From Thermoplasmatota archaeon (GTDB taxonomy: Archaea > Thermoplasmatota > Thermoplasmata > UBA10834), in the NCBI GenBank assembly GCA_018818785.1, contig JAHIRF010000009.1, positions 124,001-188,000 of the forward strand: a stretch of DNA of 64,000 nt, read 5' to 3'. Under the pieces are notes generated by a model, which saw nothing but the letters and a program-made list of their open reading frames with translations, was not told where the DNA came from and made no database searches. This document shows, piece after piece, positions 40,384 to 63,899 of this stretch. A program made the position numbers and the translations under genes. Each line of letters begins with the position of its first letter. Positions within the stretch are counted from its first letter, which is position 1.

Positions 40384-40806
40384 CTACTTCTTCGATTCCT
40401 CGAAGTCGAGAGATAACGAGTTTATGCAATACCTTCTACCTGTGGGGGCAGGGCCGTCATCGAACACATGACCCAGGTGGCTTCTGCATATGCTGCAGAC
40501 CAGCTCAATACGCTTCAGTTCTATCGAATCATCCTCTGTCTCTGCGATGCTCTCTTCCGACAGGGGCGCCCAGAAGCTGGGCCATCCAGATCCCGAATCG
40601 TACTTGGTCTCAGACCCGAAGAGTTTGTTACCACAGGCGGCGCATAGGTACTTTCCGTTCTTCTTGTTGTAGAGCAGGTCCCCAGAGAATGGCGCCTCAG
40701 TCCCCTTCTCTCTGAGCACCTTGTATCTCTTGGGAGTCAGCTTGCGCTTGAAATCCTTTTCGGGTACTCCCGTCGCATCTGTCATCAATACCGGTATTTG
40801 GATCAC
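40384..40806 (-). CDS. msrB: Peptide-methionine (R)-S-oxide reductase
   Basis: MsrB repairs the R form of methionine sulfoxide. The 140-residue protein has two zinc CxxC pairs (CAAC and CSIC), YDSGSGWPSFWAPL, and the catalytic Cys in RRYCINSLSLDF. ATG 40783 (MTDATGV) is an alternative start. It marks the left border of the accessory island. Confidence 0.94.
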   Translation of the reverse strand: MIQIPVLMTDATGVPEKDFKRKLTPKRYKVLREKGTEAPFSGDLLYNKKNGKYLCAACGNKLFGSETKYDSGSGWPSFWAPLSEESIAETEDDSIELKRIELVCSICRSHLGHVFDDGPAPTGRRYCINSLSLDFEESKK

Positions 40807-40862
40807 GGATGGGAATATCCTTTCCCCGATTTTGCATGAAGGCTGACTTCATGGTAGCGGGT

Positions 40863-41267
40863 TCATGGATCGACAGTGTCTGGCTTCTCGGTTCGTATGT
40901 CATCCTTCTTCACTATTGAAATCACAATGAATGCAAGTGTCAGTATCATCAATACTCCAAACATGGCCACGAATGCCAACTCTCCCGACTCGGCATAATA
41001 TCCAGGGCTCACTATCACGGTATATGATAGCATCCCCAGCGCGACCATGTTGGCTTGGTATCCCCAATGTCTCCTCATGGTTATTGCCACTCCTCCAAGA
41101 AGCAGTGCGAAAGCAGTAGTTAACTCAGCTGCCAGATGGAACGAGATCTCGAGCGGACTGGATTCGAGTTCTGGTATCTGATCCGTCAGGGCGAACACGG
41201 ACCACATTGCTGCCATCATGATTCCAATTATGATCGAATAGGCGGCGACAGCGCTCCTGATATTCAT
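40863..41267 (-). CDS. Four-helix membrane protein, unknown
   Basis: A 134-residue protein with four hydrophobic segments at about 7-26, 42-60, 70-90 and 96-115, and a charged C-terminus (KKDDIRTEKPDTVDP) that should lie in the cytoplasm. No motif is recognised. It is the first of a row of small minus-strand membrane-protein genes. A and T content is higher than in the neighbouring housekeeping genes. Confidence 0.6.
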   Translation of the reverse strand: MNIRSAVAAYSIIIGIMMAAMWSVFALTDQIPELESSPLEISFHLAAELTTAFALLLGGVAITMRRHWGYQANMVALGMLSYTVIVSPGYYAESGELAFVAMFGVLMILTLAFIVISIVKKDDIRTEKPDTVDP

Positions 41268-41363
41268 CTTATCACATGCCGAATAATCTCATATTGTATG
41301 ATTCTTACTGACCTGATCGAAGAAGAACTGGTTCTGTGTGGTCTTCGGCAATCATCGGACGAG

Positions 41364-41525
41364 CTAGAGTAGCCAATCTATGGTCCAGTATAGAAGCGCC
41401 ATTAGAATGATGATTATCAGTAATGCTAGGGCGCCGCGTCCACTTAATTTGAACCGCCCTCCCTTCTCATACTCTAGTTCTGCCTTATCATCATGGGGGG
41501 GCTGGATGGTTATCTGCTGGGACAT
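41364..41525 (-). CDS. Single-helix small membrane protein
   Basis: A 53-residue ORF with a strong ribosome-binding site (GAGGAGG) 5 bases before its ATG. The N-terminal 28 residues are soluble (MSQQITIQPPHDDKAELEYE and basic residues). A single helix follows (GALALLIIIILMALLYW), ending WLL. The good ribosome-binding site and clean design argue that it is real. The function is unknown. A stem-loop and a TATA-overlapping dyad lie about 120-175 bases upstream. Confidence 0.6.
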   Translation of the reverse strand: MSQQITIQPPHDDKAELEYEKGGRFKLSGRGALALLIIIILMALLYWTIDWLL

Positions 41526-41647
41526 TTTTCCTCCTCATGATATTATTGACGCGGTAGTTCATCCATTTATTGCTCAAATTGTCGGTTGTCCGTGATTCCC
41601 AGAGAATGAGCCGCATCAGAATCGAGCTTGACTCATTTTGTACGATC

Positions 41648-41700
41648 GATTTCGCCCGTGCAAGGCAATTTGAACTGGCGAAATCACCTGTATAAACAGG
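41648..41700. promoter_or_regulatory. 9-bp stem-loop next to a dyad over a TATA box
   Basis: GATTTCGCC (41648-41656) and GGCGAAATC (41677-41685) are exact complements around 20 bases. Immediately after comes CCTGT-ATAA-ACAGG (41687-41700), a perfect dyad containing TATAAA/TTTATA. This fits a regulated promoter for the minus-strand gene at 41364-41525, or the end of 41742-42029. Confidence 0.4.
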
Positions 41701-41741
41701 AGATATCGAATCGCTCTGAGTCATCTACCCTGTCCGCCCCC

Positions 41742-42029
41742 TCAAACCTTTTGATTTCTTCCTATCCAGTGCATTGCCAGACACGAGATAGATGCCGAAA
41801 CAGCAATTGTGCCTATCACTGTCATTAGAATGCCCGCATTGACAACGGTCTTATCTGGAGTATTTAGGACGTAATGCCCATCCATGAAATACAATCCAAT
41901 ATGGGATCCATTATTAATGATTAGAATTCCCAAGGCAATCAATACAATTCCTATGAGTGCAATAGTCATCAGCAATGCCAATTTCCACCTCATCCGATCA
42001 CTGTGTTCATGATGGCATTTCACATTCAT
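41742..42029 (-). CDS. Two-helix membrane protein in the island
   Basis: A 95-residue protein with a short histidine/cysteine-containing N-terminus (MNVKCHHEHSDRMRWK) and helices at about 17-38 and 62-84. ATG 42029 is used. The longer frame to 42095 runs through repeat Y1 and is not credible. Only one Cys is present, so it is not a zinc ribbon. The function is unknown. Repeat Y1 lies directly upstream. Confidence 0.5.
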   Translation of the reverse strand: MNVKCHHEHSDRMRWKLALLMTIALIGIVLIALGILIINNGSHIGLYFMDGHYVLNTPDKTVVNAGILMTVIGTIAVSASISCLAMHWIGRNQKV

Positions 42030-42066
42030 AATTCTGGTCCAGAGCATGGACCCTGTGGGATTAGGA

Positions 42067-42153
42067 ACCACGAAACTGACTGGCTCACACCTCAAAATGC
42101 CTTTGTTAGGGCATCTTCGCCGAGGAGACGGATTGAGAGATAGGCTGAAACGC
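42067..42153 (+). repeat. Repeat Y1
   Basis: About 75 bases match Y2 at 48205-48285 with roughly 89% identity. It contains GACTGGCTC (42078-42086), a hairpin ATGCCT-TTGTTA-GGGCAT, and the conserved CTTCGCCGAGGAGAC, and it runs into a pyrimidine tract. It lies between two minus-strand one-gene units. Confidence 0.75.
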
Positions 42154-42170
42154 TTTCCTTTTTTCTGATT

Positions 42171-42677
42171 TCAATGAGGAAGAAGCCAACTATCGACCTC
42201 TTCATACCACTCTTCTGAGTCTAAATATCTGAAGGTTACCTTGAGTTGCACTTCATCCAGGTCCGCCTCCTGTTCATTGAATGTTGTTGGCAGGCGGAAC
42301 GAGTCATAGAAATCTGTGGAGCTACCCGCAGGCATCCATCTGAGAGTTTCAGTGATATTATAATTCCAGCCTCGGTCATCTGATAGACTGAGCGTGACTT
42401 GGGCGAAACAGCCTACAGAGCCGACATTGAAGATGTATCCCGAGCACAGCATATCATACCAACCGACACTTCCATCAGCGCCTCCGAAATTAACTTCGGT
42501 CTCAAGAACACCTACCAATTCAGGTCTTGGCTTGAGTGATCCAGCCACATAAATGGCTGCTCCGATTATCACAAGGACAATCACAACTGCAGCGGCAATC
42601 AATATCATTCTGTTGAGCTTCAATGCATCTCGCCATTCTGGATTGGGTAACGGTGTACCACACTTCGGACAATTCAG
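42171..42677 (-). CDS. Zinc-knuckle membrane-anchored protein, apparent CTG start
   Basis: The reading frame holds an N-terminal half zinc ribbon (LNCPKCGTPLP), a basic stretch, a helix (MILIAAAVVIVLVIIGAAI) and a 115-residue beta-rich outside domain with two Cys (YDMLCSGYIFN, SVGCFAQV). It aligns with sister genes that start with ATG inside the pattern GAGGGAATGGTATGAA. Here the ATG position reads CTG (GGAGGGAATAGACTGAAT). Either CTG is used, or the gene starts at the inner TTG 42623 or ATG 42608 without the zinc motif. It is 168 residues from CTG 42677. The function is unknown. Confidence 0.5.
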   Translation of the reverse strand: MNCPKCGTPLPNPEWRDALKLNRMILIAAAVVIVLVIIGAAIYVAGSLKPRPELVGVLETEVNFGGADGSVGWYDMLCSGYIFNVGSVGCFAQVTLSLSDDRGWNYNITETLRWMPAGSSTDFYDSFRLPTTFNEQEADLDEVQLKVTFRYLDSEEWYEEVDSWLLPH

Positions 42678-42731
42678 TCTATTCCCTCCAACCTTCTTCT
42701 GGATACCCGTTCGCCCATATGGCCTTTTCTC

Positions 42732-42822
42732 ATCGACCTATTGGGATTTGAACCCACCAAAATGACTGGCTCGACCGATTTAGGTACATGATACCCGTCT
42801 TATCGCATCTTTGGAAGGCACC
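42732..42822 (+). repeat. Repeat X1, tRNA T-arm-like core
   Basis: It matches X3 (44971-45061) at about 86 of 91 positions. It contains GGGATTTGAACCC, which reads GGGTTCAAATCCC on the minus strand like a tRNA T arm, then GACTGGCTC (42764-42772). A pyrimidine tract (CCCTTTCTCTTTCTCC) follows. No complete tRNA can be folded. Confidence 0.8.
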
Positions 42823-42871
42823 TCAAAATTGGACATAAACCCTTTCTCTTTCTCCATTTGAGGATGAATCT

Positions 42872-43027
42872 CTACCTGATGGTGGTAAACCATGCAAAGA
42901 GCCAAAACAGCCACGATATGAACCATAATATGCCCAAGGCAAGGAGCCAATTCAAGGTTCCTTCAATATTCTTCAATGAATTCGTCATCTCTGCTGACAG
43001 CTGTTGAATCGGCGAACCACTCACCAT
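42872..43027 (-). CDS. Small single-helix membrane protein
   Basis: A 51-residue ORF: a polar N-terminal 27 residues (MVSGSPIQQLSAEMTNSLKN) and a Trp/Phe-rich helix (LALGILWFISWLFWLFAWF). Its upstream region carries the shared island promoter/leader (43042-43073), including GAGGGAAT just before ATG, which strongly supports that it is expressed. I recognise no family. Confidence 0.6.
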   Translation of the reverse strand: MVSGSPIQQLSAEMTNSLKNIEGTLNWLLALGILWFISWLFWLFAWFTTIR

Positions 43028-43041
43028 AGAATTCCCTCGTT

Positions 43042-43073
43042 CCCGAATCGCCTTCGATGACTTAAGAGCTTCT
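43042..43073 (-). promoter_or_regulatory. Shared island promoter/leader, copy P1
   Basis: The minus strand reads AGAAGCTCTTAAGTCATCGA then AGGCGATTCGGG, with CTTAAG 34 bases before the start of 42872-43027. It is nearly identical to three other copies (P2-P4). Confidence 0.6.
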
Positions 43074-43123
43074 CCCCGTCCATATGGCCTTTGCGCGCTG
43101 AGAATTCCAGACCGCGGGATTAT

Positions 43124-43585
43124 CTAGCCGCCGTAACCTGCACGTTCCCTGCCGACCTTCCAGGCAAAATACAGGATTGCGAAGCCAAATAAGCACCATA
43201 TCAGGCCCCCCAACCACCCTGCATCAAGGAAGAAGAACAAGCCGAGCAGAATATAGATTGGGATTGAGATGATCAAACCTATGATGTATTGCCCCTTGGT
43301 GGAGTAGAGCCTTCCCGAATTGAGGGATGGAATACTGGCACCTGCCACATATGCATCCTCTGGCACGAGAGATGGGAGGAATTCCTTCGAGGAGATAGTC
43401 TTGGCATATCCACGATCCAGGTCCTCTCCGCACCGACCACAATACACAACGTGTGGTGGGTTCTCGTGCAGGCAAGCGGGGCAGGTTCTAGAACCCTCCG
43501 GCCGAGACTGCAGCTTCACGCCGCATTTGTTGCAGTATATCGATGCGTCTGGGTTCTCATGGCCGCAAGGACATCTCAGTGGCAT
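43124..43585 (-). CDS. Double zinc-ribbon membrane protein
   Basis: A 153-residue protein with two N-terminal zinc ribbons: CPCGHENPDASIYCNKCG (residues 5-22) and CPACLHENPPHVVYCGRCG (34-52). A linker follows, then two hydrophobic helices at about 99-120 and 122-142, and a basic end. Zinc ribbon plus helices is repeated in four other genes of this island with little similarity outside the ribbon. The ribbon should face the cytoplasm. The function is unknown. Confidence 0.65.
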   Translation of the reverse strand: MPLRCPCGHENPDASIYCNKCGVKLQSRPEGSRTCPACLHENPPHVVYCGRCGEDLDRGYAKTISSKEFLPSLVPEDAYVAGASIPSLNSGRLYSTKGQYIIGLIISIPIYILLGLFFFLDAGWLGGLIWCLFGFAILYFAWKVGRERAGYGG

Positions 43586-43635
43586 GTCGCACCTTCACCT
43601 GAGAGCCACAGAGGCGAACACAAAGATTATGCTGG

Positions 43636-43690
43636 AAACCCGTTATTCTTCTAGAGGGGTTCATCGCCCCTCACCAAATCTCTTTCGCTT
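43636..43690 (+). repeat. Repeat Z1
   Basis: AGGGGTTCATCGCCCCT hairpin followed by CACCAAATCTCTTTCGC. It resembles Z2 (45066-45107) and Z3 (48284-48344), including the preceding CCCGTTATTCTT. Confidence 0.6.
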
Positions 43691-43879
43691 TTCAATCCCT
43701 TGGCCCTTTCTTGGATCTGGAGAAGATCATGACGATGAACTCGATTTCAACCCCTAGTTATAGGAGCCGCGGAGTCAATGACTTCGAGATTGCTTCAAAA
43801 TATCCATTCCGCGACAACTATAATTGAACCTGTGCGCATCCGCCGTCGGTGGTACAGGGTGAGTTCGTTGGAAACCTCG

Positions 43880-44194
43880 ATGCATGTGACATTCGCTGTG
43901 GTGCCAATTCTGGCCATTGGAATTGTCTTGGGTATCGTGCTACTTGTGATCGGTTTGTCTAGGAGAAACAGCGCAATTATCGGATACGGGGAAACGCTCT
44001 TTGGACTGACCGTCTTCGCCTTTCCGATGGTGTTCTTCCTTGACAAGGTTTCAGATGACTGGGAGGCATTCGTGCCTTCGACTGGAGACATCGCATTACT
44101 TGGGATTCTGTCCTTCGTAGGAGGCATGAGCGTTGCACTCGGATTGAGGAACATCCTATCTAGGACGAGTGTGTCGAAGTTCTCTACATTATGA
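43880..44194 (+). CDS. Three-helix membrane protein
   Basis: A 104-residue plus-strand protein with helices at about 2-24, 37-52 and 67-86 and a basic C-terminus (RNILSRTSVSKFS). ATG 43880 is chosen because upstream residues are polar and arginine-rich and probably not coding. It is one of only four plus-strand genes in the island. The function is unknown. Confidence 0.5.
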   Translation: MHVTFAVVPILAIGIVLGIVLLVIGLSRRNSAIIGYGETLFGLTVFAFPMVFFLDKVSDDWEAFVPSTGDIALLGILSFVGGMSVALGLRNILSRTSVSKFSTL

Positions 44195-44260
44195 GGAATC
44201 CGAAGGTGTCCCATCAACCTTTGTCATTTCGTCCTCGAAATCCGTTTCCCGGGATTCAAA

Positions 44261-44345
44261 TCGAAGGGGATTTGAACCCCTGAGGAGCCAGTGTGTCAGG
44301 ATTCGGATTCAATCAACGGGGAATTGGCCGGAGCTAAACCTCTTT
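44261..44345 (+). repeat. Repeat X2, tRNA T-arm-like core
   Basis: It matches X4 (47609-47695) at roughly 80%. It opens CGAAGGGGATTTGAACCCC and runs through ATTCAATCAACGGGGAATTGG to CTAAACCTCTTTCCTC. On the minus strand AGGGG-TTCAAAT-CCCCT is a perfect T-arm. The rest does not fold as a tRNA. Confidence 0.75.
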
Positions 44346-44436
44346 CCTCATTTATTCTCCCTCAAGCAAGACAAAGATACAAGAGCAGATTGATGCATTC
44401 CGAACTCTAGAGGGTGGTAGCCTGCGTATCGGTCAT

Positions 44437-44928
44437 GTGGATGGGAAGAATAGGATTTACGATGAGCAGGGAAATCTACTTCTCCTTCCGAACGAGAATC
44501 TCTTGACCAAACACTATTTCGTGACCATGAATGTGACCGAGTCGTGGCGGAGTTTCTACATAGAATGCGTGATAGCGATGGAAGCTGGCCCCTTCAAGTG
44601 CTTCCTAACCAATCAACGAGTGGTCTTCACTCGACGGCCAAATCCTTACAAAGCTGGAGCTTACTTGATGACACCTCTCGGTGCTCCTGAAGGCATTGCT
44701 AAGGCGTACAAGGCGCGTATGATCTTACAGGCTGGGGGATTTGAGTACTACGAATTGTTCTTCAGGGACATCAGATTCTACAAAGTCTTCAAGAACTGTG
44801 TTGATTTGTTCATCATGGGCGATGAACGGCAGAAGAACAGGGCAACTATCTCGAATCATGGTGCGAAGCCTGCGTTGAGAGTTCCTCTTATCGATCTCTT
44901 AATCAACAAGGGCATTCAGTCTAAGTGA
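44437..44928 (+). CDS. PH/GRAM-like domain protein, possibly 5'-truncated
   Basis: A 163-residue soluble protein. KCFLTNQRVVFTRRP (residues 62-76) and LFFRDIRFYKVFKNCVDLF (107-125) match the beta-strand pattern of bacterial PH/GRAM-type domains that sit on membranes. The frame is open and protein-like upstream (KTKIQEQIDAFRTLEGGSLR), but there is no ATG, GTG or TTG before the region merges with repeat X2. So either GTG 44437 is the start or the original 5' end was lost by recombination at X2. There are no cysteine clusters. Confidence 0.55.
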   Translation: MDGKNRIYDEQGNLLLLPNENLLTKHYFVTMNVTESWRSFYIECVIAMEAGPFKCFLTNQRVVFTRRPNPYKAGAYLMTPLGAPEGIAKAYKARMILQAGGFEYYELFFRDIRFYKVFKNCVDLFIMGDERQKNRATISNHGAKPALRVPLIDLLINKGIQSK

Positions 44929-44970
44929 TGTCACTATTCAGCCTCCTTGATAGCATTTTCTCCCTCGATC

Positions 44971-45061
44971 ATCGACCCATTGGGATTTGAACCCACCAAA
45001 ATGACTGGCTCGACCGATTTAGGTACATGATAGCCGTTTTATAGCGTCTTTGGAAGGCACC
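44971..45061 (+). repeat. Repeat X3, tRNA T-arm-like core
   Basis: About 95% identical to X1 over 91 bases, in the same orientation 2.2 kb away. It is followed directly by Z2. GACTGGCTC is at 45003-45011. Confidence 0.8.
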
Positions 45062-45065
45062 CGAA

Positions 45066-45107
45066 ACGAGGGGTTAATTACCCCTCATTAAACCCCTTTC
45101 TTTCTCC
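45066..45107 (+). repeat. Repeat Z2
   Basis: GAGGGG-TTAATTA-CCCCTC hairpin, then ATTAAACCCCTTTCTTTCTC. It lies just beyond the 3' end of the minus-strand gene 45184-45552. Confidence 0.65.
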
Positions 45108-45183
45108 AATTGGAGTTTCTGAATTAGCAGGCTCAATACTCTTCTCCTTGTTGCTCCGACTTTATAGGTTTCTAGATTGACGA

Positions 45184-45552
45184 TCAATTTGGCTGTGTTA
45201 GACGCTTGTTGAAGATAATGGCAAACACACCAACTATTGTGATCAATACGGCGAAGCCTAGCCAAATTTTGAGGAGGGTAACGGCATCCGACCGGTCTGT
45301 CACAAAGACTGAGCTTATCAGGGTGACCAGGGTGGTACCAACAGTCACAATGACCGCAAGAATAGCAACTAAGGTCACCCTCCGAATGTTGATTGCATTA
45401 GACACTTGTGCGTCGAGTCGCGTTGTCTCACTTGTCATATTGAAATCTGCTCCATTCAAACCCCGACTCAGCGCCTTCTTGATGTGTTCCCTGCAATCAA
45501 CGCAATAGATTGCGCCCTCTGGATTCTGCTTCCCGCAATTTGGGCACTTCAT
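45184..45552 (-). CDS. Zinc-ribbon membrane protein
   Basis: A 122-residue protein with an N-terminal ribbon CPNCGKQNPEGAIYCVDC (residues 3-20), a polar linker to about 55, and helices at about 56-80 and 93-113. The start ATG 45552 follows GAGGGAAT and the shared promoter P2. The C-terminus (NKRLTQPN) is short and cytoplasmic. It is a paralogue in layout, not closely in sequence, of 43124, 45592 and 46182. Confidence 0.65.
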   Translation of the reverse strand: MKCPNCGKQNPEGAIYCVDCREHIKKALSRGLNGADFNMTSETTRLDAQVSNAINIRRVTLVAILAVIVTVGTTLVTLISSVFVTDRSDAVTLLKIWLGFAVLITIVGVFAIIFNKRLTQPN

Positions 45553-45571
45553 ACCATTCCCTCTACCGTGA

Positions 45572-45603
45572 CCCGAATCGCTCTCAATGGCTTAAGGGCT
45601 TCC
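45572..45603 (-). promoter_or_regulatory. Shared island promoter/leader, copy P2
   Basis: GAAGCCCTTAAGCCATTGAG then AGCGATTCGGG upstream of 45184-45552. CTTAAG is 39 bases before the ATG. The stop codon of the preceding gene (TAA) lies inside CTTAAG. Confidence 0.6.
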
Positions 45604-46008
45604 TTTTCGATGATTAGGATTGTATTCAATGCTGATTCCAGCAACTATGAATGCTAATAGAATGACACCGAATTCTAGCAGTCGAGTGGCAAATCTGATG
45701 CTCTCCCCCGCTTCCTGGATTTCGTCATAAGTAGTCGCATCCTTTTGTTGCGAGAAAGCCACCTCCATGAGAATGTATCCTCCAAGAATGAGAAGCAGCG
45801 CAACGATAGCCAGAGCAGGAATGAGCCGGGATCTCCAGTTGCTGCCTGAGCTGTATCTTGCTTGAGAGTTTGTGGTTCTAGAAACAAGAATCTCTTGAGA
45901 ATCATCTCCATACTCACTGGGCAATTTCGCCATATCCTTGCCACATTTTCGGCAGATAGTATTTCTCTGAAAAGAACTCCAGTGTCCACAATGCGGGCAT
46001 TCGATCAA
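45592..46008 (-). CDS. Zinc-ribbon membrane protein, TTG start
   Basis: A 138-residue protein with ribbon CPHCGHWSSFQRNTICRKCG (residues 4-23), a Ser/Arg-rich linker, and helices at about 63-85 and 107-127. The start is TTG 46008 after GGGGGAATGG and promoter P3. A mild A/T preference sets it apart from housekeeping genes. Its stop codon is part of the next gene's promoter, so the two genes are packed tightly but each has its own promoter. Confidence 0.62.
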   Translation of the reverse strand: MIECPHCGHWSSFQRNTICRKCGKDMAKLPSEYGDDSQEILVSRTTNSQARYSSGSNWRSRLIPALAIVALLLILGGYILMEVAFSQQKDATTYDEIQEAGESIRFATRLLEFGVILLAFIVAGISIEYNPNHRKGSP

Positions 46009-46026
46009 GAGACCATTCCCCCATTG

Positions 46027-46058
46027 CCCGAATCGCTCTCGATGGCTTAAGGGCTTCT
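46027..46058 (-). promoter_or_regulatory. Shared island promoter/leader, copy P3
   Basis: GAAGCCCTTAAGCCATCGAG then AGCGATTCGGGC upstream of 45592-46008. CTTAAG is 38 bases before the TTG. Confidence 0.6.
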
Positions 46059-46069
46059 CTCAGAAGAAT

Positions 46070-46150
46070 CGTGGTGCGGCCGCCGGGCCGCGCACCCTGC
46101 ATCAGCCAGCCATCATTTCTCTGATTTCAATTGACCCGCAATGACCTCTT
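46070..46150. repeat. GC-rich hairpin and Y1-tail-like sequence
   Basis: A strong hairpin, GCGGCC-GCCG-GGCCGC, followed by CTGATTTCAAT, which also occurs after Y1 (near 42160). It sits between two zinc-ribbon genes where a repeat would be expected and may be a decayed one. Confidence 0.35.
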
Positions 46151-46181
46151 CCGCCACATTGTCTTTTCCGATGCGAGGCGC

Positions 46182-46568
46182 TTATCTCCACGTCTGCTGA
46201 CTATAATGTGCAAGAAGGTAGACTGCGATGACCACTAGGATTGCGAACGCAACTAGGCCAGCTGCGCTCAGGTCCGATGCGGTTTTCAGGTCATGCGCAT
46301 AAGTATAGAGGTTCTGTGGATTCTCAGCGAGGGCTCGCATCCAAATCTGGCCGACCACAATCGCAAGAGCAGCTATCGTCAAAGCAGGACCAACGATCCA
46401 GGTCAAGATCAGCCCCTGGTCTTTGTATGATGGCTCAGGCACATACGTTTTGACACGTTCAATCTGGATTTTCAATGGCTTTTGTTCAGTTCCGCCGAAC
46501 GAGCATCCGCAGTTACCGCAGTAATCCATTCTAGAAGGATTCTCAAACCCGCATTTCGGACACTTCAT
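46182..46568 (-). CDS. Zinc-ribbon membrane protein
   Basis: A 128-residue protein: ribbon CPKCGFENPSRMDYCGNCG (residues 3-21), a basic linker, and helices at about 50-72 and 97-119. ATG 46568 with GAGGGAAT upstream and promoter P4; an in-frame ATG two codons earlier is possible. It is divergent from the integrase gene, and the two promoters are only about 40 bases apart. Confidence 0.65.
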   Translation of the reverse strand: MKCPKCGFENPSRMDYCGNCGCSFGGTEQKPLKIQIERVKTYVPEPSYKDQGLILTWIVGPALTIAALAIVVGQIWMRALAENPQNLYTYAHDLKTASDLSAAGLVAFAILVVIAVYLLAHYSQQTWR

Positions 46569-46582
46569 CGCCATTCCCTCGA

Positions 46583-46617
46583 TCGTAATCGCCTTCGATA
46601 GCTTAAGGACTTCTCTC
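46583..46617 (-). promoter_or_regulatory. Shared island promoter/leader, copy P4
   Basis: GAAGTCCTTAAGCTATCGAA then GGCGATTACGA upstream of 46182-46568. CTTAAG is 34 bases before the ATG. It is next to the divergent integrase promoter (CTATATGTAAG near 46640). Confidence 0.6.
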
Positions 46618-46679
46618 TGCGGTCCACAGTCATCCCCCTCTATATGTAAGGGCGGTGAGACTTGCGACTGGCTCTGCAC

Positions 46680-47600
46680 ATGCAAGTAATCATTGTCTTC
46701 GCTGCGGGATATGAAGCGATGTGCGTGCGCCAACCCAAATTGAGGAGAGACCCTCGGAAATGGACAGAGAATGAGATCAAGGCGATTCTCCAAGACCTGA
46801 AGGAAAAACAATTGAGTCTTGCGACTCAATGCAAGGAGCTGCAGCATATTGGCGTGGTATTGACCCATTGTGGAAATGGAATAATGAGGAAGATGCGGCT
46901 AGCGTCACCTCATGCATTCCCACACGAGGATCGAGTCAGGGGGCCCAGTCTCATGGAGAATGACCTTGACCGGATTCTGAGAGCGTGTGAAAGAATACCT
47001 GAATGGTGGGGCGAAGTGGCGAGATTCATCTTTGCCGCTTATGCCTACACAGGTCTCAGAATGTCTGAGCTCCGAAGGGCTGAATTCAGGGATGTCAATA
47101 CTAGGGAATGGCTATTCTTTGTAAGGCATCCCAAAGGTGAGAGCAGTTATGGACGACAGAGAACAATCCCCATACCCCCGCCCTTGAAACCCTATGTGCT
47201 GAGTTTCTTGCAGGAGCGAGCTAAGATGCTGGTGGAGCGAGGGCTAGTCGAAGCAAAATGCTTTGTCTGCAAGAAATCTGGAAACCCGAATGAACCGTAT
47301 TCGACGAACGGCTTCGAAACTCTGAAATTGCGAGTAGAGAAGGAATCCGGAATCACTTTCCAGATTCGGACACTGAGACGCACATATGGTCAAGTGCTCT
47401 TGAACAGAGAAGTGCCTCTAGATTCAGTCTCATTGACTATGGGACATAGATACACAAGCACCACCGAGAAGTACTATTGCAGAAAAGACGACGGCATGGC
47501 GAGACTCGAGGTCCTTCGAGGCTTCGAAATGCCGTCACCGGCTCCGAGTTTTAATACCCCCCAGATTGAAAAAGAAAATGATTATACTGGCTATGCGTAG
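46680..47600 (+). CDS. Tyrosine recombinase/integrase
   Basis: A 306-residue site-specific recombinase. The N-terminal 100 residues are a poorly conserved core-binding domain. The catalytic domain has TGLRMSELR (Arg 127) and HPKGES (lysine region), then RTLRRTYGQ where HxxR is expected (Arg 230 in the His position, Arg 233 conserved). TMGHRYTSTTEKYY gives His 256 and the nucleophile at Tyr 265/266. A Pro/Asn-rich tail follows. ATG 46680 is taken; ATG 46722 is possible. It is flanked immediately downstream by repeat X4, as integrases often are by their attachment site. Confidence 0.85.
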   Translation: MQVIIVFAAGYEAMCVRQPKLRRDPRKWTENEIKAILQDLKEKQLSLATQCKELQHIGVVLTHCGNGIMRKMRLASPHAFPHEDRVRGPSLMENDLDRILRACERIPEWWGEVARFIFAAYAYTGLRMSELRRAEFRDVNTREWLFFVRHPKGESSYGRQRTIPIPPPLKPYVLSFLQERAKMLVERGLVEAKCFVCKKSGNPNEPYSTNGFETLKLRVEKESGITFQIRTLRRTYGQVLLNREVPLDSVSLTMGHRYTSTTEKYYCRKDDGMARLEVLRGFEMPSPAPSFNTPQIEKENDYTGYA

Positions 47601-47608
47601 GGATGGAC

Positions 47609-47695
47609 CGAAGGGGATTTGAATCCCTGAAGAGCGAGCATGTCACGACTCAAATTCAATCAGCGGGAAATTGGGTTCGGATCTAAACCTTTTTC
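47609..47695 (+). repeat. Repeat X4, tRNA T-arm-like core next to the integrase
   Basis: Direct repeat of X2, beginning 8 bases after the integrase stop: CGAAGGGGATTTGAATCCCT through AAACCTTTTTCTC. The pyrimidine tract encodes the C-terminus of the convergent gene 47683-48129. Confidence 0.75.
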
Positions 47696-48129
47696 TCTTT
47701 TCCCAAATCTTGCTTGAAGCCTCTCCGATAGAGAAGCAAAGAGTCGGAAACGAGCAATAACCCAAACATGGCAATTGCCACAAGACTCGAATCAAAAACT
47801 TCGGAATCGAAAACAATATTGCTAAATCCCACGAATACCAGGGCTGCGCCTGCCAAGAACTCTACTGCAACATACAACGCCATCACTGTCGATTCCCCAG
47901 GCAGATACAAGAAGGCGCTCAATTGCCGACTGGCTGCAAATGACACAACTAGGAATACCACTCCAAGAGCAAAGAAGATCAGCCCGAGGTCGGAAATCAT
48001 CAGAGAAATCCCTGCTGCAGTCATCATGATTCCCAGAATGAGTGGGACAAGAATAACAGATGAAGCATACGAATTGGTGATCCTTGGCTTTGAGGATTGT
48101 TGAGGTCTGGTCAAATCGGTCTCAAGCAT
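47683..48129 (-). CDS. Four-helix membrane protein
   Basis: A 148-residue protein with a polar N-terminus (MLETDLTRPQQSSKPRIT) and four helices at about 24-42, 47-63, 78-98 and 112-130. The C-terminal KQDLGKEKKV is encoded by the purine side of repeat X4. ATG 48129 suits a TATA-like GTTATATATG near 48174; an ATG at 48174 would lie on that box. The function is unknown. Confidence 0.55.
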   Translation of the reverse strand: MLETDLTRPQQSSKPRITNSYASSVILVPLILGIMMTAAGISLMISDLGLIFFALGVVFLVVSFAASRQLSAFLYLPGESTVMALYVAVEFLAGAALVFVGFSNIVFDSEVFDSSLVAIAMFGLLLVSDSLLLYRRGFKQDLGKEKKV

Positions 48130-48204
48130 AGCCGATAGGCACTGATGTTTCCTGGCATAAATCCTTCCGCACATATAACGATCCTTATCGACTCATTGGA
48201 ATGA

Positions 48205-48285
48205 GAAGCCATGAAACCGACTGGCTCACACCCCAAAATGCCCCTGTTAGGGCATCTTCGCCGAGGAGACAGATTGAGCGGTAGC
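48205..48285 (+). repeat. Repeat Y2
   Basis: Direct repeat of Y1, 6.1 kb away. It has GACTGGCTC (48219-48227), a perfect hairpin ATGCCC-CTGTTA-GGGCAT and CTTCGCCGAGGAGAC, and is followed by Z3. Confidence 0.75.
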
Positions 48286-48344
48286 AAACCTGTTATTCTT
48301 TTTGAGGGGTTAATTGCCCCTCATCAAACCCTCTTTCCTTTCTC
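48284..48344 (+). repeat. Repeat Z3
   Basis: CCTGTTATTCTTTTTGAGGG, hairpin GAGGGG-TTAATTG-CCCCTC, then ATCAAACCCTCTTTCC. It lies just past the stop of the minus-strand gene 48368-48580. Confidence 0.65.
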
Positions 48345-48367
48345 AGTTCACTCTGAGGCTATTGGAT

Positions 48368-48580
48368 TTAGTCATCGTGATGCTCCACCTTGATGGTCAC
48401 GTTTGGTTTGATGCCGGCTAGTGCTGGTAGCATGTGATTGAGGACTTGCTCTGCGGTCGCGCGGAACTCTCGGCCACGTGCGCTCACCTTCACCCAGCTA
48501 GTTCCGTCGCGGTAATAGCGCTCAGTGAAGTTCTTGGTGCCAATCAATATGACATAACTCTCATTGGTCAGGTTCATCAA
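48368..48580 (-). CDS. Small soluble protein, unknown
   Basis: A 70-residue protein with alternating beta-like segments (YVILIGTKNFTERYYR, TSWVKVSARGREFR) and a helix (EQVLNHMLPALAG), ending NVTIKVEHHDD. It has no zinc motif or membrane segment. It is the outermost minus-strand unit of the island. Annotation rests on ORF length and context only. Confidence 0.45.
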   Translation of the reverse strand: MMNLTNESYVILIGTKNFTERYYRDGTSWVKVSARGREFRATAEQVLNHMLPALAGIKPNVTIKVEHHDD

Positions 48581-48639
48581 TCATTCTTCCATCCTGTCAT
48601 CGCAATGCCTCCCCTTGGCCTTTTCTGAGAGGAAAGCAA

Positions 48640-48645
48640 TTTATA
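48640..48645 (+). promoter_or_regulatory. TATA box of the leaderless gene at 48666
   Basis: TTTATA centred 23 bases upstream of ATG 48666 would start transcription almost on the start codon. Confidence 0.45.
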
Positions 48646-48665
48646 CGGCCAATTCATTGGGCGCG

Positions 48666-48896
48666 ATGATGGTCGAGACTGAAGGTGCAGAATTCCAGAG
48701 AAAGGCGACATTCTCATTCTATGCGCTGCTCCTGGTCGCAGGAATCTCTCTCTATTGGATATGGGGCATGATGTACGACACATGGTACCCGTTCGATAAG
48801 GGGAACATCGGCATCTATGTGATATACGCCCCGCTCATGCTGTTCGGAATCGTAGGACTCCTGCTCTACAGGAAGAAGAAGCATCTGCCCCAGTGA
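48666..48896 (+). CDS. Two-helix membrane protein
   Basis: A 76-residue protein with a polar N-terminus (MMVETEGAEFQRK), helices at about 15-33 and 48-68, and a basic end (YRKKKHLPQ). A TATA box predicts a leaderless mRNA from ATG 48666 (or 48669). It lies at the right border of the island, convergent with proS. The function is unknown. Confidence 0.6.
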   Translation: MMVETEGAEFQRKATFSFYALLLVAGISLYWIWGMMYDTWYPFDKGNIGIYVIYAPLMLFGIVGLLLYRKKKHLPQ

Positions 48897-63798: not shown

Positions 63799-63899
63799 GG
63801 GCCTGTAGCTCAGCTAGGTAGAGCAATCGGCTCTTACTTCGATTCTTCAGAATCGAGGGAGATACCGATTGGCCAAGGGTTCGAATCCCTTCAGGCCCG
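63799..63899 (+). tRNA. tRNA-Lys(CTT) with a 27-base intron
   Basis: A complete cloverleaf: acceptor GGGCCTG/CAGGCCC, D arm GCTC/GAGC, anticodon stem ATCGG/CCGAT, variable loop TGGCC, T arm AAGGG-TTCGAAT-CCCTT, discriminator G at 63899, and no encoded CCA. The anticodon CTT (63833-63835) is followed after one base by an intron at 63837-63863, the canonical archaeal position. The intron forms TCGATTC-TTCA-GAATCGA. AT boxes lie upstream (TTTTATTAA near 63765-63775 and TTTATAC near 63780). The mature tRNA is 74 bases. Confidence 0.95.

What the first reader, a model, noticed from the sequence alone, without database searches (positions are those of the whole stretch)
40863..48896. Cassette-like accessory island of one-gene units, repeats and a tyrosine recombinase
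Between msrB and proS lies a more AT-rich stretch of about a dozen very small genes. At least five encode a zinc ribbon or half ribbon plus membrane helices, and several others are membrane proteins. Repeats of 50-100 bases lie between the units, a tyrosine recombinase sits inside, and four units share one promoter/leader. The layout (gene, short 3' element, next gene, recombinase nearby) resembles an integron cassette array, yet the repeats do not look like attC and the recombinase has no integron-integrase hallmark that I can see. Nested integrative-element scars are the alternative.
Basis: partly seen in the sequence, partly recalled or inferred. Interest (0 to 1): 0.85.

Follow-up and report, generated by a model that had tools for sequence, protein, structure and literature searches.

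The report
Archaeal one-gene cassette array, not integron
An uncultured archaeon and its relatives carry rows of small one-gene DNA units that have been gained, lost, reshuffled and passed between species at fixed short sites, much like bacterial integron cassettes but with different sites (one 21-base box, and copies of tRNA gene ends) and a different enzyme, which would make it a separate way for microbes to trade genes.

Summary
Window 40.85-48.63 kb is an AT-richer island of about 13 small genes and a tyrosine recombinase. It contains six 90-100 nt repeats, all on the minus strand. Each ends in the T-arm of a tRNA-Ala gene, preceded by one of three arm types (X, Y, Z). They are attachment-site halves, not attC.

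The same repeats occur in other islands of this genome, one anchored at tRNA-Ala(CGC) with a gene-site-gene-site layout. Relatives have the locus empty (G001, G002, G007, G011).

In relatives, unit starts carry a 21-nt BOX (GAGAAAAGGCCATAGGGGCGG) in arrays of up to 18 copies. Adjacent BOXes point the same way (99:1), although a third of the enclosed genes run the other way. Thirteen distinct cross-genome alignments start and end at BOXes, some at 96-97% identity between unrelated neighbours. Window unit 48337-48626 is 90% identical to an insertion in another family, whose site is empty in a relative.

So the cassette reading is supported for the lineage. It is not an integron: no IntI, no folded attC. 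Pure scars are less likely, though the window's own array looks partly decayed. The enzyme that moves BOX units is unknown. I found no published description.

The parts
40845..48626 (.). the island: insertion between msrB and the conserved gene 48564+
   Evidence: relatives have msrB (or the aminotransferase) and the 48564+ gene 29-265 bp apart
42047..42143 (-). Y1: type-Y arm plus tRNA-Ala(CGC) 3' end (..AATCCCACAGGGTCCA)
   Evidence: tRNA gene at G000:C9:156303-156374
42726..42827 (-). X1: type-X arm plus T-arm core, followed by BOX
42711..42731 (-). BOX copy, 2 mismatches, directly after the X1 core
43076..43096 (-). degenerate BOX, 4 mismatches, just ahead of a W leader
43636..43691 (-). 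partial copy: hairpin and start of a Y-type arm, no core
   Evidence: D5
44257..44346 (-). Z1: type-Z arm plus tRNA-Ala(TGC) T-arm core
44965..45068 (-). X2: type-X arm plus T-arm core; hairpin beside it at 45068-45086
46058..46145 (-). fourth repeat, with a GCGGCCCGGCGGCCGC-like palindrome; relatives at C9:342.4 kb and C12:105.2 kb
   Evidence: read from sequence; weak DNA matches
47604..47695 (-). Z2: type-Z arm plus 27-nt tRNA-Ala(TGC) 3' end (one mismatch), 3-4 nt from the integrase stop codon, the place a tRNA takes in relatives
48188..48284 (-). Y2: type-Y arm plus degenerate T-arm core; hairpin at 48304-48322
48607..48627 (-). degenerate BOX (6 mismatches) at the right edge of the island
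   Evidence: 90% homology to G019 starts here, where G019 has a BOX with 2 mismatches
46662..47600 (+). tyrosine recombinase, 312 aa, about 70 aa shorter at the N-terminus than relatives
47683..48174 (-). unit gene; relative (69%) with the start of a Z arm lies in another island, at tRNA-Arg(TCG), in G010
48368..48580 (-). unit gene; 90% identical copy in G019, a different family
43042..43072 (-). W leader copy
   Evidence: D3
45572..45602 (-). W leader copy, upstream of gene 45184-
   Evidence: D3
46027..46057 (-). W leader copy, upstream of gene 45592-
   Evidence: D3
46583..46613 (-). W leader copy, upstream of gene 46182-
   Evidence: D3
40863..41267 (-). unit gene, membrane protein
   Evidence: 42% relative in L188 (G007)
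41364..41525 (-). small membrane protein gene
41742..42029 (-). unit gene starting just after the Y1 core, membrane protein
42171..42680 (-). unit gene, half zinc ribbon plus membrane helix
42872..43027 (-). small membrane protein gene
43124..43585 (-). unit gene, double zinc ribbon plus membrane helices
   Evidence: PF12773, E 5.8e-12
43778..44194 (+). unit gene in the opposite orientation, membrane protein
44437..44928 (+). unit gene in the opposite orientation, no Pfam match
45184..45552 (-). unit gene, half zinc ribbon plus membrane helices
45592..46008 (-). unit gene, zinc ribbon plus membrane helices
46182..46568 (-). unit gene, half zinc ribbon plus membrane helices
48564..48896 (+). 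conserved flanking gene next to proS, not part of the island

Best explanation
The island is a chromosomal array of mobile one-gene cassettes, a partly decayed member of a larger system confined to one family of uncultured Thermoplasmata. Shown here: units are bounded by fixed DNA sites that point one way. One site type is a 21-nt BOX at the unit start. The other is a ~65-nt arm plus a tRNA T-arm core (GGTTCAAATCC) at the unit end. Units are gained, lost, reshuffled and transferred with edges at these sites. Inferred: a tRNA-targeting tyrosine recombinase, whose gene abuts tRNA 3' ends in many relatives, recombines the arm-plus-T-arm site of a circular unit with the T-arm of a tRNA gene. The dispensable T-arm copy left at the far end then serves as docking site for further units, so arrays grow beside the tRNA without harming it. 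In relatives, and to a small extent here, units join at BOX alone by BOX x BOX exchange, catalysed by that recombinase in trans, by XerA, or by an enzyme not identified. How the array reached the msrB-proS gap, which has no tRNA gene, is unknown; secondary-site insertion is my guess.
For: Repeat ends equal tRNA-Ala(CGC) and tRNA-Ala(TGC) 3' ends. A tRNA-anchored array has the same layout in this genome (C9:156.3-165.7 kb). A tRNA-Trp array in G010 has five arms whose cores mostly match tRNA-Trp. The X arm is joined to Ala(CGC), Ala(TGC) or Val-type cores in different genomes, so the break lies in the core. Integrase relatives face a tRNA 3' end within 600 nt at 24 of 53 segments (some counted twice), often 4-9 nt away. 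BOX is nearly confined to the family: 25-61 copies in six of seven genus g3 genomes, 0-1 outside the family. Adjacent BOXes are same-oriented 99:1; enclosed genes are 60 sense to 29 antisense. Alignment ends near BOX: 68 of 393 against 20 expected, max 30 in 200 trials; 18 alignments (13 distinct) with both ends at BOX. A 234-bp unit 96% identical in G007 and G016 has unrelated neighbours. Empty sites. Lateral transfer of a window unit.
Against: No circular form or live rearrangement was seen (no reads available). The window array has mostly arm/core junctions and only three BOX-like copies, two of them poor. The window integrase lacks about 70 N-terminal residues. The large BOX arrays have no recombinase of this family beside them. 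Most genomes are draft assemblies.
Confidence: 0.7

Rival explanations
1. Nested scars: successive ordinary tRNA-targeting integrative elements (plasmids, proviruses) inserted one after another, each leaving an arm-plus-core attachment half, and later deletions left single genes between the scars.
For: The sites are true tRNA 3' ends next to an integrase; truncated integrase copies lie at several tRNAs; archaeal elements that use tyrosine recombinases are known to insert in tRNA genes and form arrays (PMC6563490).
Against: Units repeatedly hold one complete gene (median 578 bp in relatives) and recur in other species with both edges at the sites. BOX arrays of up to 18 units have no tRNA-derived arms at most junctions. 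A single unit sits alone in another family.
Confidence: 0.2
2. BOX is only a promoter shared by small genes, and shuffling happens by general homologous recombination between promoters.
For: BOX is followed by a start codon within tens of bases in many units, and a TATA-like W leader often follows it.
Against: In 29 of 89 units the main gene runs against BOX, yet BOX orientation is 99:1 coherent. Twenty-one bases is short for homologous recombination. A lone unit was inserted in an operon gap with BOX at its edge.
Confidence: 0.08
3. A decayed integron (attC cluster without integrase, CALIN).
For: Array of short genes between repeats, with a recombinase; integrons occur in some archaea (PMC9668308).
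Against: No attC-like fold at the arm/core sites (z between -1.2 and 0.8) or BOX sites (mean z -0.4). IntI model score 21.4 against cut-off 265. Repeats derive from tRNA genes.
Confidence: 0.02

Closest known systems
Integrons and CALIN arrays, including archaeal integrons (Ghaly et al. 2022, PMC9668308)
   Same: Tandem arrays of mostly one-gene units with sites in one orientation, mobile cargo of mixed function, a tyrosine recombinase in some arrays, arrays without one in others
   Different: Sites are a 21-nt unstructured BOX and arm-plus-tRNA-T-arm; no IntI, no attC fold; gene direction is not fixed; 'Thermoplasmat*' does not occur in that paper's main text
tRNA-targeting archaeal integrative elements with tyrosine integrases (PMC6563490; also PMC4158269)
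   Same: Integrase gene next to the tRNA 3' end, core equal to the tRNA 3' end, arms beside the core, tandem insertion known
   Different: Known elements are multi-gene and carry their own integrase; here one-gene units with no integrase carry the site, the arm is kept while the core tRNA type changes, and BOX junctions exist
GInts (PMC5385486) and tycheposons (named in PMC11389934; details from my own knowledge)
   Same: Islands moved by tyrosine recombinases; tycheposons are tRNA-linked with exchangeable cargo
   Different: GInts need four genes and were not seen in archaea; neither is described, as far as I know, as an array of single-gene units with a site per unit

Membership tests
Integron | IntI integrase | tested here: not met
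   TIGR02249 21.4 bits against cut-off 265 for the window protein; two relatives 31-33 bits
Integron | attC sites with a conserved folded single strand | tested here: not met
   six arm/core sites fold no better than shuffles; 124 BOX regions mean z -0.4; no dedicated attC covariance model was run
Integron | attI site next to the integrase | tested here: inconclusive
   a tRNA T-arm or its copy holds that place, 3-9 nt from the integrase end in many cases; functional docking not shown
Integron | tandem one-gene cassettes, sites in one orientation | tested here: met
   BOX 99:1 same orientation; most of 93 BOX-BOX units hold one ORF >=60 aa, median 578 bp
Integron | cassettes gained, lost and reshuffled at the sites | tested here: met
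tRNA-targeting integrative element | tyrosine integrase | tested here: met
   PF00589 E 1.1e-16; N-terminal truncation
tRNA-targeting integrative element | attachment core equals a tRNA 3' end | tested here: met
tRNA-targeting integrative element | inserted at the tRNA gene | tested here: not met
   no tRNA gene in or near the island; met for the C9 island and in relatives
tRNA-targeting integrative element | multi-gene element with its own integrase between two core copies | tested here: not met
   most units have one gene and no integrase
tRNA-targeting integrative element | excision as a circle | not testable with these tools
   no reads
Insertion sequence or MITE | terminal inverted repeats and a transposase | tested here: inconclusive
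   the repeat search returned only two weak inverted pairs in the island and none of ten island proteins matched a transposase family; no dedicated IS search was run

The most novel reading that the evidence does not exclude
A second, independently evolved cassette-capture system: an archaeal lineage uses tRNA T-arms (and a 21-nt BOX) as docking and unit-boundary sites for single-gene cassettes, moved by tyrosine recombinases acting in trans on double-stranded DNA, giving integron-like genome arrays without IntI or attC.
Probability: 0.5. Interest if true: 0.93.

Novelty: categorically new. Interest (0 to 1): 0.85.

Why it matters
Integrons are the textbook system for stockpiling and shuffling single genes. 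A second system of that kind, built from tRNA-derived attachment sites and a short BOX, would show how cassette capture can arise from ordinary tRNA integrases. It would also explain how an uncultured archaeal family stores dozens of small accessory genes, and give a defined sequence (BOX) by which such arrays can be found and tested.

Tried and rejected
attC-like folding of the repeats: rejected. Rfam: no match. Repeats as chance: rejected. Gene 48564+ as a unit: rejected, conserved flank. BOX as plain promoter: disfavoured. A conserved partner motif upstream of BOX: none beyond a few weak positions. BOX in viral contigs: no exact 18-nt match in IMG/VR. Window integrase in phage records: none. 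The 4.7-kb inserts at the same site in G006 and G017 look like a peptide-transport operon and carry none of the sites, so they were not counted as arrays. Relatives of the integrase in genome contigs: only one locus, L079, which proved most useful.
Full report
THE OBSERVATION. The island lies between msrB (40384-40806, minus) and a small gene at 48564 (plus) beside proS. GC falls to 0.46-0.52 against mostly 0.52-0.57 elsewhere. It holds about 13 small genes plus a tyrosine recombinase. Three pairs of 66-98-nt repeats and a 31-nt leader in four copies are real.

WHAT THE REPEATS ARE. Read on the minus strand, every repeat is a ~65-nt arm followed by the T-arm, and often the acceptor stem, of a tRNA. 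Z2 matches the last 27 nt of tRNA-Ala(TGC) with one mismatch; Y1 ends in the tRNA-Ala(CGC) 3' end. There are three arm types, X, Y and Z. In the whole window a 13-nt T-arm core with up to two mismatches occurs only at four of these repeats and in a tRNA-Lys gene at 63.8 kb; the two Y cores are more degenerate. The repeats are therefore best read as attachment-site halves of tRNA-targeting recombination. Single strands of these repeats do not fold better than shuffles, and no Rfam family matches.

THE SAME ANATOMY ELSEWHERE IN THIS GENOME. Copies lie in other islands on contigs C1, C7, C8 and C9. The C9 island is anchored at the tRNA-Ala(CGC) gene (156303-156374). After an integrase follow Z site, one gene, Y site, one zinc-ribbon gene, Y site.

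EMPTY SITES. Relatives of the same genus and family have msrB (or the aminotransferase) and the 48564+ gene next to each other: gaps of about 83 bp (G001), 50-116 bp (G002), 63 bp (G007), 29 bp (G011) and 265 bp (G005). G003 and G014 hold a single zinc-ribbon gene there, G014 with a BOX-like site at its edge. G009 has an island of at least 7 kb with BOX and X sites. Several other contigs end at this spot.

THE RECOMBINASE. The window protein is a PF00589 enzyme far below the IntI and XerA cut-offs. It starts about 70 residues later than its relatives, so it may be inactive. Relatives at E <= 1e-25 occur in 63 of 400 class genomes. In 24 of 53 examined segments (some loci counted twice) the C-terminal end faces a tRNA 3' end within 600 nt, often at 4-9 nt, at Ala, Arg, Leu, Trp, Ser, Val, Gly and Met tRNAs. 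In the window the Z2 core takes exactly the place of that tRNA end.

ARM CONSTANT, CORE VARIABLE. The X arm carries Ala(CGC)-, Ala(TGC)- or Val-type cores in different genomes. In G010 a tRNA-Trp array has five arms, the best preserved with tRNA-Trp cores. This is what exchange inside the T-arm would produce; it is inference, not an assay.

BOX. Unit starts in relatives carry GAGAAAAGGCCATAGGGGCGG. With up to three mismatches it occurs 13 times in this genome, 25-61 times in six of seven genus g3 genomes, and 0-1 times outside the family; the reversed control gives 0-1. In G007 and G016 it forms arrays of 17-18 copies. Adjacent copies are same-oriented 99:1. The main gene of the unit runs with BOX in 60 and against it in 29 cases. 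A promoter would not behave so; a unit-boundary site would. In the window only 42711 (2 mismatches) is a good BOX; 43076 and 48607 are degenerate, and at six mismatches chance alone gives about 1.6 hits.

RESHUFFLING. Among cross-genome alignments 68 of 393 ends lie within 30 bp of a BOX, against 20 expected (maximum 30 in 200 trials), and 18 alignments (13 counting reciprocals once) have both ends there. A 234-bp unit is 96% identical in G007 and G016 with unrelated neighbours on both sides. Units of the single G016 array L238 have their relatives in several separate G007 arrays. At such identity, neutral divergence of the flanks cannot explain the break.

WINDOW UNITS ELSEWHERE. Gene 47683-, with the start of its Z arm, recurs (69%) in an island at tRNA-Arg(TCG) in G010, recognisable as Thermoplasmata archaeon 13_Jan_SF_Bin61. 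Only 3 of 400 class genomes, this one included, have the gene. Unit 48337-48626 is 90% identical to an insertion in G019, a different family, while proS is 67% identical. Homology starts at BOX and stops where the window's hairpin and arm begin. In G019 the unit lies between genes resembling cbiQ and an ECF S component (my reading of the sequences); G020 has these genes 57 bp apart.

CARGO. 78 unit proteins from relatives match transporters, regulators, glyoxalase, clostripain-like peptidase, zinc ribbons and DUFs, with no single theme; a few weakly match CARF/Csa3 or other defence models.

MECHANISM. Best supported: mobile one-gene cassettes with fixed boundary sites. Inferred: insertion by tRNA-targeting tyrosine recombinases acting in trans on arm-plus-T-arm sites, with the spare T-arm copy as docking site, and BOX x BOX exchange by an unidentified enzyme. 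G016 (65% complete) with 44 BOX copies shows only one PF00589 protein, of the XerA-like type, and the large BOX arrays have no recombinase of this family beside them. That is the main gap in the model.

KNOWN KINDS. It works like an integron but fails the IntI and attC tests. It uses the target logic of tRNA-integrating archaeal elements (PMC6563490), but its units are single genes without integrase. Searches of the paper library found no description; the library lacks many subscription papers, so novelty is provisional.

Noticed in passing
window 63799-63899 (+): tRNA-Lys(CTT) with an intron; missed by the plain ARAGORN call on the window but found by Rfam and ARAGORN with introns.
   Followed up: no
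L135 and L130 (G006, G017), same chromosomal gap: The gap beside proS is an insertion hotspot: G006 and G017 carry a 4.7-kb operon there that looks like a peptide ABC transporter, without any of the sites.
   Followed up: partly
L138 (G009:C22 end): An island at the same gap with a different tyrosine recombinase and a repeated copy of the promoter of the flanking gene (TTTATACAGCCAAT) at the junction; perhaps a provirus or plasmid that uses this promoter as target.
   Followed up: no
G000 contigs C1, C7, C9 ends; G004, G008, G013, G018 contigs ending beside proS: Draft contigs often end inside or next to these arrays, as repeats would cause; array numbers are probably underestimated.
   Followed up: no
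downstream of tRNA-Ala(CGC) C9:156374, tRNA-Pro(GGG) C7:85208, tRNA-Leu(CAG) C1:21467: Each tRNA is followed by an inverted, partial Z arm (CTGGC..TTTTCAATC..GGAATTG), like the second arm of a lambda-type attachment site.
   Followed up: partly
L241 and L198 (G005, G007): A 727-bp stretch is 99.6% identical between two species whose other shared units are about 84-91% identical; it lies beside tRNA-Ala(TGC) and a recombinase in G007, suggesting very recent transfer.
   Followed up: no
unit proteins of L231-L250: Two unit proteins weakly match CARF/Csa3 models and others match Fic-like and MADS defence models.
   Followed up: no
window 46058-46145: A fourth repeat type with a GC-rich palindrome (GCGGCCCGGCGGCCGC-like), also at C9:342.4 kb and C12:105.2 kb, followed there by a BOX-like sequence.
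   Followed up: partly
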